This document shows positions 17,043 to 22,340 of a stretch of 35,487 bases of DNA, piece after piece (position 1 is the stretch's first letter; each line of letters starts with the position of its first letter). The position numbers and the translations under genes were made by a program. The stretch comes from a virus. The notes below the pieces were generated by a model. It worked only from the letters and a program-made list of their open reading frames with translations, ran no database searches and was not told the DNA's origin. The stretch spans positions 1-35,487 of the IMG/VR virus record IMGVR_UViG_3300046167_000104; one strand, written 5' to 3'.

Positions 17043-17534
17043 ATGGCAGGCAAGGCGTTACGCAAACGCATATTGACGGAGGTCGCCTCCAACGGCGGCG
17101 CAGATTGGCTCTTTGACCAGATCGCGTCCGGCATCACCGTCGCCGAGCTGGCACGCCAATACGGCTGCACGCGCAGCTATGTTAGCAGGAGCCTGAACAG
17201 CGTGCCTGAGTATGCGGCTGCGCTGACCAAGGCTCGCGGCGAGGCGGCGGATGCGCTGGTGGAGCAGGGCTTGGAGATGGTTGACGGGTTGAGCGGCGCC
17301 AGCAGCCCGACGGAGATCGCCGCCACGCGCGAGAAGGTGCAGTGGCGCAAGTTCATGGCTGGCTCGATGAATCAGGATCGCTACGGCACGCGCCCGCAGA
17401 GCAATGTCACGCTTTCCATTGGCGATCTGCACTTGGATGCGCTGCGCAAGTTTAGCTCCGACATGAAGCGCGTGAACAGCGACGCCGAAGCCGCCACGAT
17501 TGACGCGGAATATGTGGAGGTGTCGGATGAGTGA
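17043..17534 (+). CDS. Terminase small subunit
   Basis: This 163-residue protein would recognise phage DNA and load the large terminase. Residues 31-51 (ITVAELARQYGCTRSYVSRSL) form a helix-turn-helix of the type found in small terminases. A helical oligomerisation segment follows (about 60-115, including REKVQWRKFMAGSMNQDRYG), then an acidic C-terminal tail (YVEVSDE). AAGGAGA stands before the ATG at 17043. It overlaps the large-subunit gene by eight bases. The non-coding region just upstream is a natural place for the packaging site. Confidence 0.85.
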   Translation: MAGKALRKRILTEVASNGGADWLFDQIASGITVAELARQYGCTRSYVSRSLNSVPEYAAALTKARGEAADALVEQGLEMVDGLSGASSPTEIAATREKVQWRKFMAGSMNQDRYGTRPQSNVTLSIGDLHLDALRKFSSDMKRVNSDAEAATIDAEYVEVSDE

Positions 17535-18927
17535 AGCCAACCCGTTTGACGACTTCGTTGTCGAGTATTACGACGACCCCGTGCGCTTTGTGCGCGAGGT
17601 GCTTGGCGCCGACCCACTGCCATATCAGGCCGAGTTTCTGGCTGCCATTGCGTCCGGCGAGCGCAAGATCAGCGTGCGCTCTGGGCATGGCACCGGCAAG
17701 TCCACGTCTGCCAGCTGGGCGATGCTGTGGTTTCTGTTTCTGCGCTTCCCGAATAAGGTTGTCGTCACCGCGCCCACATCTGGCCAGCTCTTTGACGCGT
17801 TGTTCGCGGAGATGAAGCGGTGGATCAACGAGCTGCCGCCTAATCTGAAGGACATGGTCACGGTGAAGTCCGACCGCGTTGAGCTGACGGCGGCGGCCAG
17901 TGAAGCGTTCATCTCGGCCCGCACGTCTCGCGCCGAAACGCCGGAGGCGCTCGCCGGAGTGCATAGCGAGCATGTGCTGCTGGTCATCGACGAGGCGTCA
18001 GGTGTGCCGGAGAAGGTGTTTGAGGCCGCCGCTGGCAGCATGTCTGGCCACAGCGCCACCACGGTGCTGCTGAGCAACCCCACGCGATCCTCTGGCACGT
18101 TTTACGAGAGCCAGACGCGTCTCGCCGGCAGCTGGTGGACGCGCCGCTGGTCATGCGTTGACAGCCCGCTTGTTAGCGACGAGTTCGTTGACGAGATGCG
18201 CGCGCGCTACGGGGAGGAGAGCAACGCGTTCCGCATCCGCGTGCTTGGCGAGTTTCCGTTGGCAGATGATGACACGATCGTGCCGTACCACTTAGCCGAG
18301 GCCGCGATGCGGCGCGATATCGAGGTTGCGCCTAACACGCGCGCCGTGTGGGCGATTGATCCTGCGCGCTTTGGCACCGACCGCACCGCTTTCTGCAAGC
18401 GCGAGGGCAGCGTGATTACGGAGATCAAGTCGTGGCGCGGGCTTGACCTCATGCAGACCGTTGGCCGCGTGATGGCTGAGTATGATGCGCTGCCCCCGTC
18501 GCAGCAGCCCAGCGAGATCCTTGTTGACAGCATTGGCATAGGGTCGGGCGTCGTGGATCGGATGCACGAGCTTGGCGCCCCCGTGCGCGGCGTGAACGTC
18601 GCCGAGGCTCCCTCGATGAAGGAGACGTATAACAACTTGCGCACCGAGCTGTGGTTTAAGTGCAAGGCGTGGCTGGAGGATCGCTCGTGCAAGCTGCCCA
18701 GCGACGACGAGCTGCTGGCTGACCTGACCGGCATCCGCTACGCGTTCACGTCTTCTGGGAAGATGGCTGCCGAGAGCAAGGACGCCATGCGCAAGCGCGG
18801 CCTGCGCTCGCCTGACCTTGCCGATGCCGTGTGCCTTACGATGGCGTCAGACGCGGCAACGGCCCTGAGCGGGCCGATGTCACGTTGGCGTGGCGCGATT
18901 AAGCGCAATTTGCAGGGGATTGCGTGA
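17527..18927 (+). CDS. Terminase large subunit
   Basis: This 466-residue packaging motor has an N-terminal ATPase with Walker A GHGTGKST (residues 53-60), motif VVVTAPTSGQ, Walker B VLLVIDEAS (Asp155, Glu156) and the coupling motif LLSNPTR. The C-terminal RNase H-like nuclease has AIDPARFGTDRTAF (Asp278) and DLADAVCLT. The ATG at 17527 is chosen because GGAGG at 17516-17520 has six bases of spacing; the frame is open 27 bases upstream inside the small-subunit gene. The motor docks on the portal. A strong terminator lies about 100 bases downstream. Confidence 0.95.
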   Translation: MSEANPFDDFVVEYYDDPVRFVREVLGADPLPYQAEFLAAIASGERKISVRSGHGTGKSTSASWAMLWFLFLRFPNKVVVTAPTSGQLFDALFAEMKRWINELPPNLKDMVTVKSDRVELTAAASEAFISARTSRAETPEALAGVHSEHVLLVIDEASGVPEKVFEAAAGSMSGHSATTVLLSNPTRSSGTFYESQTRLAGSWWTRRWSCVDSPLVSDEFVDEMRARYGEESNAFRIRVLGEFPLADDDTIVPYHLAEAAMRRDIEVAPNTRAVWAIDPARFGTDRTAFCKREGSVITEIKSWRGLDLMQTVGRVMAEYDALPPSQQPSEILVDSIGIGSGVVDRMHELGAPVRGVNVAEAPSMKETYNNLRTELWFKCKAWLEDRSCKLPSDDELLADLTGIRYAFTSSGKMAAESKDAMRKRGLRSPDLADAVCLTMASDAATALSGPMSRWRGAIKRNLQGIA

Positions 18928-19112: not shown

Positions 19113-19226
19113 ATGCCCAAAGTTGGATCGAAGCACTACGCGTACACGCCCAAAGGCATGGCGAAAGCCAAAGCCGCTGCCAAGAAGTCTGGCAAGAAGG
19201 TGTCATACGCGAAGAAGAAGAAGTGA
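19113..19226 (+). CDS. 37-residue Lys-rich miniprotein
   Basis: The start is ATG 19113 with CGGAGG seven bases before it; the frame is open upstream only over the terminator. The product, MPKVGSKHYAYTPKGMAKAK and then Ala/Lys repeats ending in KKKK, is extremely basic. Similar tiny proteins (PKVG.K.Y.YT.KG) are known to me from other marine phages, always near packaging or portal genes. It may bind DNA or be carried in the head. It overlaps the next gene (TGATG). Confidence 0.72.
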   Translation: MPKVGSKHYAYTPKGMAKAKAAAKKSGKKVSYAKKKK

Positions 19227-19411
19227 TGTGGACGGCGCTGCTCCTGCTTTGCAGCGTCGAGGGTAACTGCTTTTCGTTTGGCAGCCCCGTGATGCAGAGC
19301 GAGAGCCAGTGCATACAGTCCATACCGAGCGGCTTGAAATACGCGCGGCAGATGTTTCCTGCGTACCGCGCAACAGATTATAAATGCGTCCAGTGGGGCG
19401 AAGGAGCTTAG
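19226..19411 (+). CDS. Small secreted or membrane-anchored Cys-containing protein
   Basis: This 61-residue protein starts at ATG 19226, overlapping the previous stop. It has a hydrophobic N-terminal segment (MWTALLLLCSVEG) that resembles a signal peptide, and four Cys residues spread over the chain (about positions 9, 15, 29 and 55) that could form disulphides after export. It has no basic residues before the hydrophobic core, so export is uncertain. It sits between two Lys-rich miniproteins. No family is recognised. Confidence 0.55.
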   Translation: MWTALLLLCSVEGNCFSFGSPVMQSESQCIQSIPSGLKYARQMFPAYRATDYKCVQWGEGA

Positions 19412-19558
19412 ATGGCAAAGGGTTTATACGCCAACATCCACGCGAAGCGTAAGCGCATCGCTGCTGGGTCTGGCGAGAAGATGCGCAAGGTAGGCAGCAA
19501 GGGCGCGCCCACCGCGAAGGCGTTTAAGAAGGCCGCGAAAACCGCGAAGAAGAAATAG
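19412..19558 (+). CDS. 48-residue Lys/Ala-rich miniprotein (MAKGLYANIHAKR type)
   Basis: AAGGAG lies shortly before ATG 19412. The product begins MAKGLYANIHAKRKRIAAG and continues with Lys/Ala/Gly-rich text (GSKGAPTAKAFKKAAKTAKKK). This start (MAKGLYANI.AKR) is a well-known signature of tiny phage proteins found near structural genes in many genomes; the function is not established. A strong positive charge suggests DNA condensation or packaging help. It is the second of three basic small proteins in a row. Confidence 0.75.
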   Translation: MAKGLYANIHAKRKRIAAGSGEKMRKVGSKGAPTAKAFKKAAKTAKKK

Positions 19559-19559
19559 C

Positions 19560-19835
19560 ATGGCGCGCACGAAGGCAGAGAAGATCGCAGCAGCGAAAAA
19601 GCGCCACGGGTTTACTGCGGTGAATAAGCCGCGACGCGGTGGGCCGAAGAAGTTTGAAGTGCTGGCTGTTGAGGGCGACACGGTGAAGAAGGTTAACTTT
19701 GGCGATCCCAATATGTCCATCAAGAAGGATCAGCCCAAGCGCAAGGCGTCCTACTGCGCACGCTCCGGCGGCATCAAGGGCAAGTCGAGCAAGCTGAGCG
19801 CGAATTACTGGTCGCGCCGCGCGTGGGATTGTTGA
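19560..19835 (+). CDS. Basic small phage protein, DUF6321-like
   Basis: This 91-residue protein begins with a Lys/Ala-rich helix (residues 1-17). A body follows with FTAVNKPRRGGPKKFEVLAVEG, VNFGDPNMSIKKDQPKRKASYCARSGGI and YWSRRAWDC, a pattern known to me from a family of phage proteins (often annotated DUF6321) with no fixed function. FGDPNM and the C-terminal Cys/Trp motif are the recognisable parts; the two Cys (about 66 and 91) could bind a metal or pair. It completes the basic miniprotein cluster and leads into a large unknown gene. Confidence 0.78.
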   Translation: MARTKAEKIAAAKKRHGFTAVNKPRRGGPKKFEVLAVEGDTVKKVNFGDPNMSIKKDQPKRKASYCARSGGIKGKSSKLSANYWSRRAWDC

Positions 19836-19836
19836 T

Positions 19837-21519
19837 ATGGAACAGCTTTTTAACTTCTTCAGCAACGGCCAGCAGCGCCGCACCGCGCTTGACGAGCTGT
19901 TCGCTGGCTTAGAGCGTTACGTTCCCCCGAACCTACGCCCAGCGGTAGAGACGGTCGCCGAGATGAACCCCGTGCAGGGCCAGATGAACGCGATGACAGC
20001 AGGCGGCGTTGTCTTCGATCCCGATCAGACTGCGGAGGCGCGCAGGCGCGCTGCGCTTGATATGGGCGTCGAGATGGCGCTTGCGCTCACGCCTGCCGCT
20101 CTGGCTGCACGCGGATACCTCACGCCTATTCAAGGCGTCATGGAGGGGCTGCTTGGCGGCTCGCCCGCGCAGCAGCAGATCGCAGAAGATGCTGGCAAGC
20201 TTGCAGCAGACGCGTCCGGCTTAGCGCGTTCAGCGATCCAACTTGACCCCGACATGCTCAGCGAGATATTTCAGCGCGCTGGCGAAACAGAAGATTTAAG
20301 CGCGGCACGGGTTATGCTTGGATCTGATTACTTTGAGCCTCCGAGGGAAGGCGGCGGGCGCGCTAAAGATCCAGCCATGTTCACGCCGTTTTCTTTAAGC
20401 GCTAAGCAAAAAGACGCCCCATATAATTGGCGCGTTGAGGGCGAAACGCTTGAGGCTAATACGCCCCCAACGTTGATAACGCCAAGCCAAGACCAAGGCA
20501 AAACATTGTTTTTTGCTGCTGGCGACAGAACGGCTGGCGATGTTGAGATCAATAAGCTTGGAGACGTGACGTTAAAACGTCCTGTCAGGCTTTATGCTGG
20601 GCCAGAATATATGGATACCGGCGATGTTTGGGCATCACATAAGGGTGTGATGAAACCTAAGCAAAACGTATTGCTGCCGTTTGTTGAGGCTGGTGGCGAA
20701 GCAAAGCTTTCATACGCGCCAATGGGAGAAAGATCTGGAGATTTTGCGAAGCATCAGGGCGAGTTGTTTAGCGAGTATATGTATTCAGTAGATATGCCGA
20801 AAGATACCGTCAAATCTATAGACGACGAGCTGGCTAAAATTGTAAGAAAATATCAGGAAAAAACTTTAGCTTCAGAAAACAAGAAGCGAGCAAAGAAAGG
20901 TTTACCTGAGATCCAAGAGGCCGCCAACATGCCGATCCCAAGCGTGTCCTCCGATGCTTTCAGAGATTGGTTCAGCACGCAAAGCCCAGAGCAAATCAGA
21001 AAGCCATTTATGCAGCGGATCGATCAGGCTGACATGAAGGCGCTCGAAGGCGCGCCAGACGTCGGCTTGATCAGGTTTGGCACAACCAATCCTGATCTTG
21101 TGGATGTGGAAAGTTTCAGCGGCGGTTATAGGTTTGGAACGCCTGACGTGCAACGTGGCTTGCTGTCTGCGGATCACCCGTCATACGATACCAAATACGC
21201 TGCTGCTGAAGGCACAACATCTGGCACATATGGCACAAGTATTCCGTGGACAATTATGGCGAGAGATACGGCGCTCCCAAGGCTGAGAGACGCCGCATTG
21301 CAAAGCGGTTATCGCTTCGGGTCGAACACGCCCCCGCGAGACTATACGCTTCCATCAGACCAGCGCGTATTTACGATGAACCCAAACACAAGCCAGCTTA
21401 TGGATCAGCAGTTTGTTGAGGAAAGCTCAACATTTATGGATCTGGAAAAGCAGCTTGGTCGGCCAGCCGCGATAGAATACGCGCAAGGCTTGTTGATGAA
21501 TTACTTGAGGAATTATTAA
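19837..21519 (+). CDS. 560-residue protein of unknown function, mosaic composition
   Basis: The first ~150 residues are Ala/Leu-rich, with a hydrophobic stretch (about 78-95, MALALTPAALAARGYL), and use GC-rich codons. From about residue 155 the DNA becomes more A/T-rich and the protein more mixed, with beta-rich text (RPVRLYAGPEYMDTG, LSYAPMGERSGDF, FGTTNPDLVDVES). The join looks like a grafted domain. It is coupled loosely to the basic miniproteins. Large proteins with an amphipathic N-terminus and a grafted enzymatic part are often internal virion (polyvalent) proteins injected with the DNA; no catalytic motif is certain here. Confidence 0.7.
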   Translation: MEQLFNFFSNGQQRRTALDELFAGLERYVPPNLRPAVETVAEMNPVQGQMNAMTAGGVVFDPDQTAEARRRAALDMGVEMALALTPAALAARGYLTPIQGVMEGLLGGSPAQQQIAEDAGKLAADASGLARSAIQLDPDMLSEIFQRAGETEDLSAARVMLGSDYFEPPREGGGRAKDPAMFTPFSLSAKQKDAPYNWRVEGETLEANTPPTLITPSQDQGKTLFFAAGDRTAGDVEINKLGDVTLKRPVRLYAGPEYMDTGDVWASHKGVMKPKQNVLLPFVEAGGEAKLSYAPMGERSGDFAKHQGELFSEYMYSVDMPKDTVKSIDDELAKIVRKYQEKTLASENKKRAKKGLPEIQEAANMPIPSVSSDAFRDWFSTQSPEQIRKPFMQRIDQADMKALEGAPDVGLIRFGTTNPDLVDVESFSGGYRFGTPDVQRGLLSADHPSYDTKYAAAEGTTSGTYGTSIPWTIMARDTALPRLRDAALQSGYRFGSNTPPRDYTLPSDQRVFTMNPNTSQLMDQQFVEESSTFMDLEKQLGRPAAIEYAQGLLMNYLRNY

Positions 21520-21668
21520 TTGCGCTCTTCGTCAACAATATCGCGTATTACCTCCATGACGTTTGGCGGCAAGTCATCTGACGTGCCTTGTATCATAAAC
21601 GCCAAAGATAATATTCCTGCAACAAGCGGATCTGTTAGATCAAGTTCTGTATCATCTACGTCAATCAT
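21516..21668 (-). CDS. Small acidic minus-strand protein
   Basis: A 50-residue protein (MIDVDDTELDLTDPLVAG and on to DDLPPNVMEVIRDIVDEERN) starts at the minus-strand ATG ending at 21668, with GGGAGG five bases upstream. It is very acidic and helical, with a short hydrophobic middle. The frame is open further upstream, but the ribosome-binding site decides this start. Its stop overlaps the stop of the plus-strand 560-residue gene. It is one of only two minus-strand genes and has a likely promoter of its own. Confidence 0.6.
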   Translation of the reverse strand: MIDVDDTELDLTDPLVAGILSLAFMIQGTSDDLPPNVMEVIRDIVDEERN

Positions 21669-21691: not shown

Positions 21692-21720
21692 ATGTTAACA
21701 CAGTGATAAAGGCAACACAA
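21692..21720 (-). promoter_or_regulatory. Divergent control region with ATGTTAACA
   Basis: On the minus strand, TTGTGT (21720-21715), 17 bases and TAACAT (21697-21692) can serve as a promoter for the small acidic gene. ATGTTAACA occurs on the plus strand at 21692-21700, overlapping this -10 box. The same element as in the early promoters suggests shared control. The plus-strand adaptor gene starts at 21720. Confidence 0.42.
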
Positions 21721-22340
21721 TGCCCATAACAACATACGCAGAGCTGCAATCCAGCATAGGCGACTTCCTTGACCGCGATGACCTGACGAGCGTCATCCCG
21801 ACGTTTATTTCGCTGGCTGAGGCAGACATGAATCGCCAGATACGCCACTGGCGTCAGGAGAAGCGCGCCACGGCCAACATCGATACGCAGTATAGCGCCG
21901 TGCCGTCTGACTTTTACGAGGTCATACGGATGTATATTACCTCCGGCAACACGCAGCCGCTTGAGCTTATGAGCCAGTTTCAGCTGCTGGAGCGCAAGCA
22001 GCGCACGGCCAACGCAACATACGAGCCACGCTACTACGCGATTACGGCTGGCGAGATCGAGGTGTTCCCCGTTCCCGATGGCACATATGCGACGGAGCTA
22101 TATTACTACGCCAAGATCGGCGCGCTGTCTGATAGCAACACGTCTAACTGGCTGTTGGAATACTTCCCCGACGCGTATTTGTATGGCGCTCTGTCGCATT
22201 CTGCGCCGTATCTAAAAGACGATGCGCGCCTGCAAGTGTGGTCATCTTTGTATGCGAACGCGATTGGTGGTATAAACACAGACAATGATAAAGCGAAATT
22301 CGGCGGTTCTGGTCGCCGCATGAAGATAAAGGCGTATTGA
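21720..22340 (+). CDS. Head-tail adaptor protein (SU10-adaptor-like)
   Basis: This 206-residue protein begins TTYAELQSSIGDFLDRDDL, followed by IPTFISLAEADMNRQIR, the recognisable start of the helical adaptor/tail-tubular family that sits below the portal in SU10-like and related podoviruses. LPSDFYEV-like and ITAGEIEVFPVPDG segments and a C-terminal helical part (YLYGALSHSAPYLKDD) complete the pattern. A dodecamer would connect the portal to the nozzle. It is the first tail gene after a control region and is followed two bases later by the next tail gene. Confidence 0.85.
   Translation: MPITTYAELQSSIGDFLDRDDLTSVIPTFISLAEADMNRQIRHWRQEKRATANIDTQYSAVPSDFYEVIRMYITSGNTQPLELMSQFQLLERKQRTANATYEPRYYAITAGEIEVFPVPDGTYATELYYYAKIGALSDSNTSNWLLEYFPDAYLYGALSHSAPYLKDDARLQVWSSLYANAIGGINTDNDKAKFGGSGRRMKIKAY

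What the first reader, a model, noticed from the sequence alone, without database searches (positions are those of the whole stretch)
19837..21519. 560-residue mosaic protein with a grafted C-terminal part
Seen: codon use changes to A/T-rich at roughly residue 155, where the protein also changes from Ala/Leu-rich helical to a mixed enzyme-like chain. Inference: an injected protein with a swapped effector domain. The fold is unknown to me, so it is a good place to look for new enzyme activity against the host.
Basis: partly seen in the sequence, partly recalled or inferred. Interest (0 to 1): 0.5.

Follow-up and report, generated by a model that had tools for sequence, protein, structure and literature searches.

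The report
Phage cargo protein with swappable effector
A marine bacterial virus carries, beside its packaging and head genes, a protein whose front part stays nearly constant between close relatives while its back part is exchanged among several unrelated modules, which looks like a socket for interchangeable injected weapons; the module in this virus belongs to a family I found in neither Pfam nor PHROGs.

Summary
The 560-aa protein is a real mosaic: GC3 is 0.70 in codons 1-146 and 0.50 after. In six close relatives with both flanks 92-97% identical, the segment from about base 20,275 (codon 147) to the start codon of the next gene (21,720) is replaced as one cassette. Of 74 loci with the N-terminal module, 73 could be clustered by their C-terminal parts, into seven clusters. 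One is an ADP-ribosyltransferase (PF18760). On a tree of N-module DNA the types intermix among near-identical phages; the window's nearest row there carries the ART.

The window's own module ('domain A') matches no family convincingly in Pfam, PHROGs or PDB sequences, yet occurs in 87 distinct proteins, 55 with packaging or head genes nearby. Two AlphaFold models give YTH (PUA-superfamily) domains as top structural matches, at modest Z.

Best reading: a virion-packaged, co-injected protein with an exchangeable effector. Packaging, injection and activity are inferred, not shown. It resembles MuF polymorphic toxins and polyvalent proteins, but has no detectable MuF domain and mostly no room for a downstream immunity gene.

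The parts
19837..21519 (+). Mosaic cargo protein gene, 560 aa
19837..20271 (+). N-terminal module, codons 1-145, constant between relatives (95-100% aa identity in near relatives that carry type B or C modules, 45-70% in wider ones)
20272..20280 (+). Left junction of the exchanged cassette (around codon 147)
   Evidence: (blastn ends at window 20275-20276)
20422..21456 (+). Domain A core (about residues 196-540), alpha/beta; AF2 pLDDT 80.7, pTM 0.78 for residues 150-560; conserved D230, G255, D302, R388, P407, R413, H447, Y450
21157..21165 (+). GLL tripeptide at residue 441 (others at residues 104 and 551)
21516..21668 (-). Small convergent ORF, 50 aa, acidic, with a Shine-Dalgarno-like GGAGG (read by eye) in the 200-nt gap behind the type A560 gene; possible but unproven antitoxin
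21719..21720 (.). Right junction of the cassette, at the start codon of the adaptor gene
21720..22340 (+). Head-to-tail adaptor (SU10_adaptor PF24175, E 6e-38), right flank of the cassette
17500..18927 (+). Terminase large subunit, in the upstream flank

Best explanation
The gene encodes a virion cargo (ejection) protein with two parts. The N-terminal ~146 residues are a constant module that I infer docks the protein in the capsid or carries it out with the DNA. The C-terminal part is an effector cassette exchanged by recombination between the end of the N-module and the start of the adaptor gene, so that near-identical phages carry different effectors: domain A here, an ART in the nearest row of the N-module tree, other modules elsewhere. 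The effector would act in the host at the start of infection, on host metabolism or defence. Domain A is a family absent from the libraries searched; its predicted fold has a YTH/PUA-like core, and it has an invariant D plus near-invariant R, R, H and Y, so I think it most likely binds or modifies a nucleic acid or nucleotide. Shown: the mosaic, the cassette, repeated swapping, the family, the gene neighbourhood, the predicted fold. Inferred: packaging, injection, effector role, nucleic-acid target.
For: Cassette borders and flank identity in six relatives. Seven C-terminal clusters on one N-module family, 73 of 74 loci clustered. On the N-module tree all labels together need 21 changes where 10 is the least possible; type A560 needs 7 changes for 7 rows; a starred clade of 17 rows holds A560 7, B 7, C 3; the window's nearest row is the ART-bearing L018 at 97%. 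ART-PolyVal in the same slot, 32.5 bits over cut-off 31.2. Domain A fused to InPase and, in long forms, to a Phage_L5_gp82-like domain (4 of 33 members). 55 of 87 distinct domain A proteins have a terminase, portal, adaptor or capsid gene in the stretch held, at E<=1e-4, and 42 at 1e-10. Type B's first half is a remote domain A: hhalign probability 98.1%, E 9.4e-14, the 12 other profiles at most 1.3%. Models: L012 domain pLDDT 91.8, window domain 80.7; YTH chains head both VIA lists.
Against: No virion proteomics or injection data for this phage. Foldseek finds no PDB match at E<=0.001 (best 0.58). Best Z of 7.4 and 5.8 lie in the range the tool calls common without true kinship. The EVE profile comparison gives 0.6%. 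The YTH aromatic cage was not tested. Types are not random on the tree: they are more clustered than shuffled labels (21 changes against a mean of 36.6), so part of the pattern is plain inheritance. In L024 and L026 the right flank is also divergent (68-80% over short pieces), so there the exchange is not confined to the cassette. 32 of 87 domain A proteins had no recognised head gene nearby. The modules without a known relative, domain A included, could be structural. The N-module has no match better than E 0.9 in sequenced phages, so no isolate supports it.
Confidence: 0.6

Rival explanations
1. It is a phage polymorphic toxin used against competing bacteria or phages, like MuF toxins, with a cognate immunity gene.
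For: Constant N-terminus with variable C-terminus including an ART; a small ORF lies in the 200-nt gap behind the type A560 gene.
Against: The gap from effector stop to adaptor start is 9 nt or less (overlaps included) in 46 of 62 loci where it was measured, leaving no room for an immunity gene directly downstream (immunity genes elsewhere were not sought). No integrase family among 30 window proteins scanned. The ORF in the gap at L012 looks unrelated by eye.
Confidence: 0.12
2. It is an ordinary structural or head-completion protein whose C-terminal part is hypervariable, with no effector function.
For: Its position before the adaptor gene; in phage phiM5 a particle-detected GDSL hydrolase lies one small gene before 'tail tubular protein A'; BFVD relatives include one named 'structural protein'.
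Against: Modules without detectable similarity and of very different length (whole proteins 358-848 aa) replace each other, one of them a recognised ART-PolyVal.
Confidence: 0.2
3. Domain A is an accessory or internal-core domain that helps packaging or ejection, and only the ART types are effectors.
For: Domain A is the commonest module (40 of 74 loci), occurs with only a short N-terminal piece in many phages (355-386 aa forms), and in type B sits between the N-module and a further domain.
Against: In type C proteins it is absent and an ART takes its place, so the slot does not need it; a copy elsewhere in those genomes is not excluded, as the contigs are partial.
Confidence: 0.25
4. The mosaic is an assembly artefact of metagenomes.
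For: All close relatives found are uncultivated viral contigs.
Against: The same cassettes with the same junctions recur in contigs from many metagenomes, also in 34.6 and 41.4 kb contigs of type B.
Confidence: 0.03

Closest known systems
MuF polymorphic toxins of temperate phages (PMC5576092, passages read)
   Same: Phage packaging-module location; constant N-terminal domain with variable C-terminal toxin domains, ARTs among them.
   Different: No MuF family found; no integrase found; mostly no gap for an immunity ORF; phage with SU10-type capsid and adaptor proteins.
Polyvalent proteins of phages (PMC5512222, passages read)
   Same: Shares domains (ART-PolyVal, and InPase in a relative); encoded beside virion genes; predicted there to be packaged and injected.
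   Different: Here mostly one cassette at a time in a fixed slot, rather than an accreted chain; domain A matches none of the Pfam models above cut-off; that paper's main text does not hold the words YTH, PUA, ASCH or EVE domain.
YTH / EVE domains of the PUA superfamily (PMC7641849 and PMC7897488, search listing only)
   Same: Top structural matches of two models with 28% sequence identity to each other.
   Different: No sequence-profile support for EVE; modest Z; only 123-156 residues of models of 332 and 411 residues aligned in the YTH rows.
T4 Alt, an injected head-packaged ART (passage of PMC5512222)
   Same: Working model: packaged in the head, enters with the DNA, acts on host proteins.
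   Different: No relation to domain A was tested or seen; recalled as a fixed, not swapped, protein.

Membership tests
MuF polymorphic toxins | N-terminal MuF domain | tested here: not met
   Pfam scan of P0001 up to E 1 lists no MuF family; sequence level only
MuF polymorphic toxins | Variable C-terminal toxin domains on a constant N-terminus | tested here: met
   (variability; toxicity itself untested)
MuF polymorphic toxins | Small immunity ORF directly downstream | tested here: inconclusive
   Not met in 46 of 62 measured loci, where the gap is 9 nt or less, overlaps included; in the window's own type the gap is 200 nt (7 of 7 measured) and holds a small convergent ORF of unknown role
MuF polymorphic toxins | Temperate phage | tested here: inconclusive
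   No integrase family at E<=1e-3 in 30 window proteins; the record is linear and may be a fragment
Polyvalent proteins | Several different effector domains in one chain | tested here: inconclusive
   The window protein has one C-terminal module; relatives have ART alone, domain A plus InPase, domain A plus gp82-like
Polyvalent proteins | Packaged in the virion and delivered with the genome | not testable with these tools
   Only neighbourhood evidence
ART-PolyVal (type C relatives, not the window) | Match above the PF18760 cut-off | tested here: met
   32.5 bits against 31.2 for P0005, the one type C protein scanned
YTH/EVE (PUA superfamily), for domain A | PUA-like fold | tested here: inconclusive
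   7yz8_A Z 7.4, rmsd 4.1, 151 aligned; 4wqn_A Z 5.8, rmsd 3.8, 142 aligned
YTH/EVE (PUA superfamily), for domain A | EVE sequence profile | tested here: not met
   hhalign probability 0.6%; one of 31 members hit PF01878 at E 0.013, and a rescan of 10 of the 31 did not show which
YTH domain | Aromatic cage for the methylated base | not tested

The most novel reading that the evidence does not exclude
Apparently virulent marine podoviruses keep a dedicated effector socket beside the packaging genes, where whole host-attack modules are exchanged between near-identical phages; domain A is a new PUA/YTH-like injected effector that reads or processes modified nucleic acids of the host; and a short GLL motif, enriched in these cargo proteins, marks them for loading into the capsid.
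Probability: 0.15. Interest if true: 0.85.

Novelty: new variant of a known kind. Interest (0 to 1): 0.62.

Why it matters
If the constant part is a delivery module, it gives a ready handle for finding unknown phage effectors: whatever sits behind it is a candidate. Here it exposes several modules for which I found no known relative, one of them (domain A) spread over phages with different portal and terminase types and fused to an InPase domain in one. Near-identical phages that differ in this cassette would be natural pairs for testing what a single effector does to host range or defence escape.

Tried and rejected
Pfam, PHROGs and PDB-sequence searches of P0001 and of domain A members gave only weak, scattered hits. 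The full protein found one sequenced phage (MW202675, 24.7%, E 3e-3). A seven-sequence alignment (A1) was too diverse to scan a collection with. Domain A as an ART: not supported; hhalign with the ART modules gave 0.2%. Domain A as an EVE domain by sequence: not supported. Foldseek against PDB: no significant match. An EVE search in nine viral records found nothing. A PF18760 search of the window found nothing, but its controls were silent too, so it shows nothing. A pattern-based domain A scan of genome contigs (84,980 species by the tool's description) gave 1 relative, on a 20.6-kb contig; the scan rests on two peptide patterns, so it can miss many. In a literature search, 'GLL motif' had 0 occurrences in each of the 8 papers listed, of 9,240 that held at least two of the four terms.

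Full report
WHAT IS THERE. The window is a linear virus record of 35,487 bases of a podovirus-like phage: portal protein, SU10-type major capsid protein and Sf6-type small terminase, SU10-type adaptor and GP4-type gp80, large terminase. No integrase family was seen among 30 window proteins scanned. The gene of interest, 19837-21519, lies between the large terminase and the adaptor.

THE OBSERVATION. The composition break is real: GC3 0.699 for codons 1-146 and 0.500 for 147-560; no shuffle of 1000 reaches the best change point, which is at codon 116. Types B and C break in the same way (C-terminal GC3 0.42 and 0.40). Some resident late genes are as A/T-rich, so the decisive evidence is comparative.

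THE SWAP. A search of viral contigs with the whole protein gave 30 loci. Reading them in frame showed one N-terminus joined to different C-terminal parts: type A (560 aa, as in the window), type B (781 aa), type C (469 aa). blastn places the borders at window ~20275 and 21719-21720, the second being the start codon of the adaptor gene. In L013, L022, L027 (type B) and L019, L020, L028 (type C) both flanks are 92-97% identical; in L024 (B) and L026 (C) only the left flank is. Nearer whole-gene relatives of type A exist (up to 100% identical protein). A wider scan with an N-module alignment gave 74 loci. Their C-terminal parts fall into seven clusters: domain A 40 loci (type B included), ART 13, a 780-848-aa protein group 11, a 575-aa group 5, a 412-aa group 2, and two single ones; one locus was too short to cluster. 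The ART label rests on PF18760 for one member and on similarity to it for the rest; the two singletons look ART-like to me by eye, from recalled motifs. On a tree of 55 N-module DNAs (window plus loci; identical and short rows dropped) the types A560, B and C mix within one starred clade of 17 rows, and the window's nearest row is a type C at 97% identity. All labels together need 21 changes, minimum 10; shuffled labels need 36.6 on average, so there is inheritance as well as exchange. The tool flagged long branches and uneven base composition in some rows, a few of them in this clade.

THE MODULE IN THE WINDOW. Residues ~150-560 match nothing convincing in Pfam (best E 0.03, below cut-off), PHROGs or, as a 31-sequence profile, PDB sequences (best E 0.52). 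In sequenced phages a relative (P0002) finds four records: Phage C72C1, MW202675, MW202879 and Roseobacter phage CRP-902. In the loci fetched, the family comprises 87 distinct proteins, some cut by contig ends, on many N-termini; one of them is the single hit in bacterial genome contigs. Of the 87, 55 have a terminase, portal, adaptor or capsid gene in the stretch held at E<=1e-4 and 42 at 1e-10; 32 do not, because none lay within it or none was recognised. Type B carries a remote copy followed by another domain (hhalign 98.1%). Over 30 representatives under 70% identity, D230, G255 and P407 are 30/30, R388 and Y450 29/30, R413 and H447 28/30, D302 27/30 (window numbers found by matching that alignment to A3).

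FOLD. AlphaFold gave a confident model of the L012 domain (pLDDT 91.8, pTM 0.87) and a fair one of the window's (80.7, 0.78). In BFVD both match phage proteins, 17 each at E<=0.001, six of them 1231-1489 aa long. In PDB, Foldseek finds nothing significant. That two models of sequences with 28% identity agree, with a clear drop behind, is suggestive; Z below 8 is not proof. The two models share most of their alignment rows, so they are not fully independent. EVE sequence profiles give no support.

HOW IT PROBABLY WORKS. Inference: the protein is packed into the head via the N-module, leaves with the DNA, and domain A acts in the fresh host. The lack of room for a downstream immunity gene in 46 of 62 measured loci fits a protein that acts on cells already doomed, rather than a toxin used by lysogens. 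What domain A does is open; a nucleic-acid or nucleotide target is my best guess, at about one in four.

WHAT IT IS LIKE. It works like a polymorphic toxin, and its alternative modules include a polyvalent-protein domain; but MuF membership fails on the MuF domain, and the immunity gene is mostly lacking. I file it as a new variant of a known kind.

A SIDE RESULT. The tripeptide GLL occurs 56 times in 34 representative cargo proteins against 10.5 expected by shuffling; LLG 20 against 10.4, LGL 4 against 10.2; in 39 control structural proteins GLL 3 against 6.2. Outside the N-module it is 42 against a mean of 9.3 and a maximum of 20 in 200 shuffles. Shared ancestry within families is not removed by this test, and 12 of the 34 proteins have no GLL.

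Noticed in passing
window 19837-21519; loci: Tripeptide GLL, often GLL[DENQSY] and often near the C-terminus (last 16 residues in 13 of 27 chosen proteins), is about fivefold enriched in cargo proteins and not in control structural proteins; a possible loading or processing motif.
   Followed up: partly
L005:4691-6001, L013:1972-3282: An extra 436-aa gene inserted directly before the mosaic gene in some relatives, ART-like by eye (no significant Pfam hit for the L005 copy); not at this place in the window.
   Followed up: partly
L022:4478-4987 (-), L019:260-706 (-): Minus-strand genes inserted just after the terminase gene in a type B and a type C relative, with a Cys/His pattern resembling papain-like proteases by eye (no Pfam hit for the L022 one); not at this place in the window.
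   Followed up: partly
window 19113-19835: Three consecutive small very basic ORFs (37, 48, 91 aa); DNA around 19395-19558 is 73-75% identical to stretches in Roseobacter and Synechococcus phages (rows listed).
   Followed up: no
window 21516-21668 (-): Small acidic convergent ORF with a Shine-Dalgarno-like site behind the type A gene; a different-looking minus-strand ORF at the same place in L012.
   Followed up: partly
L136:3143-4582, L150:3191-6349: Domain A on other N-termini: in L136 one resembling, by eye, the N-terminus of the inserted 436-aa protein; in L150 one that looks ART-like by eye (no Pfam hit for L150).
   Followed up: partly
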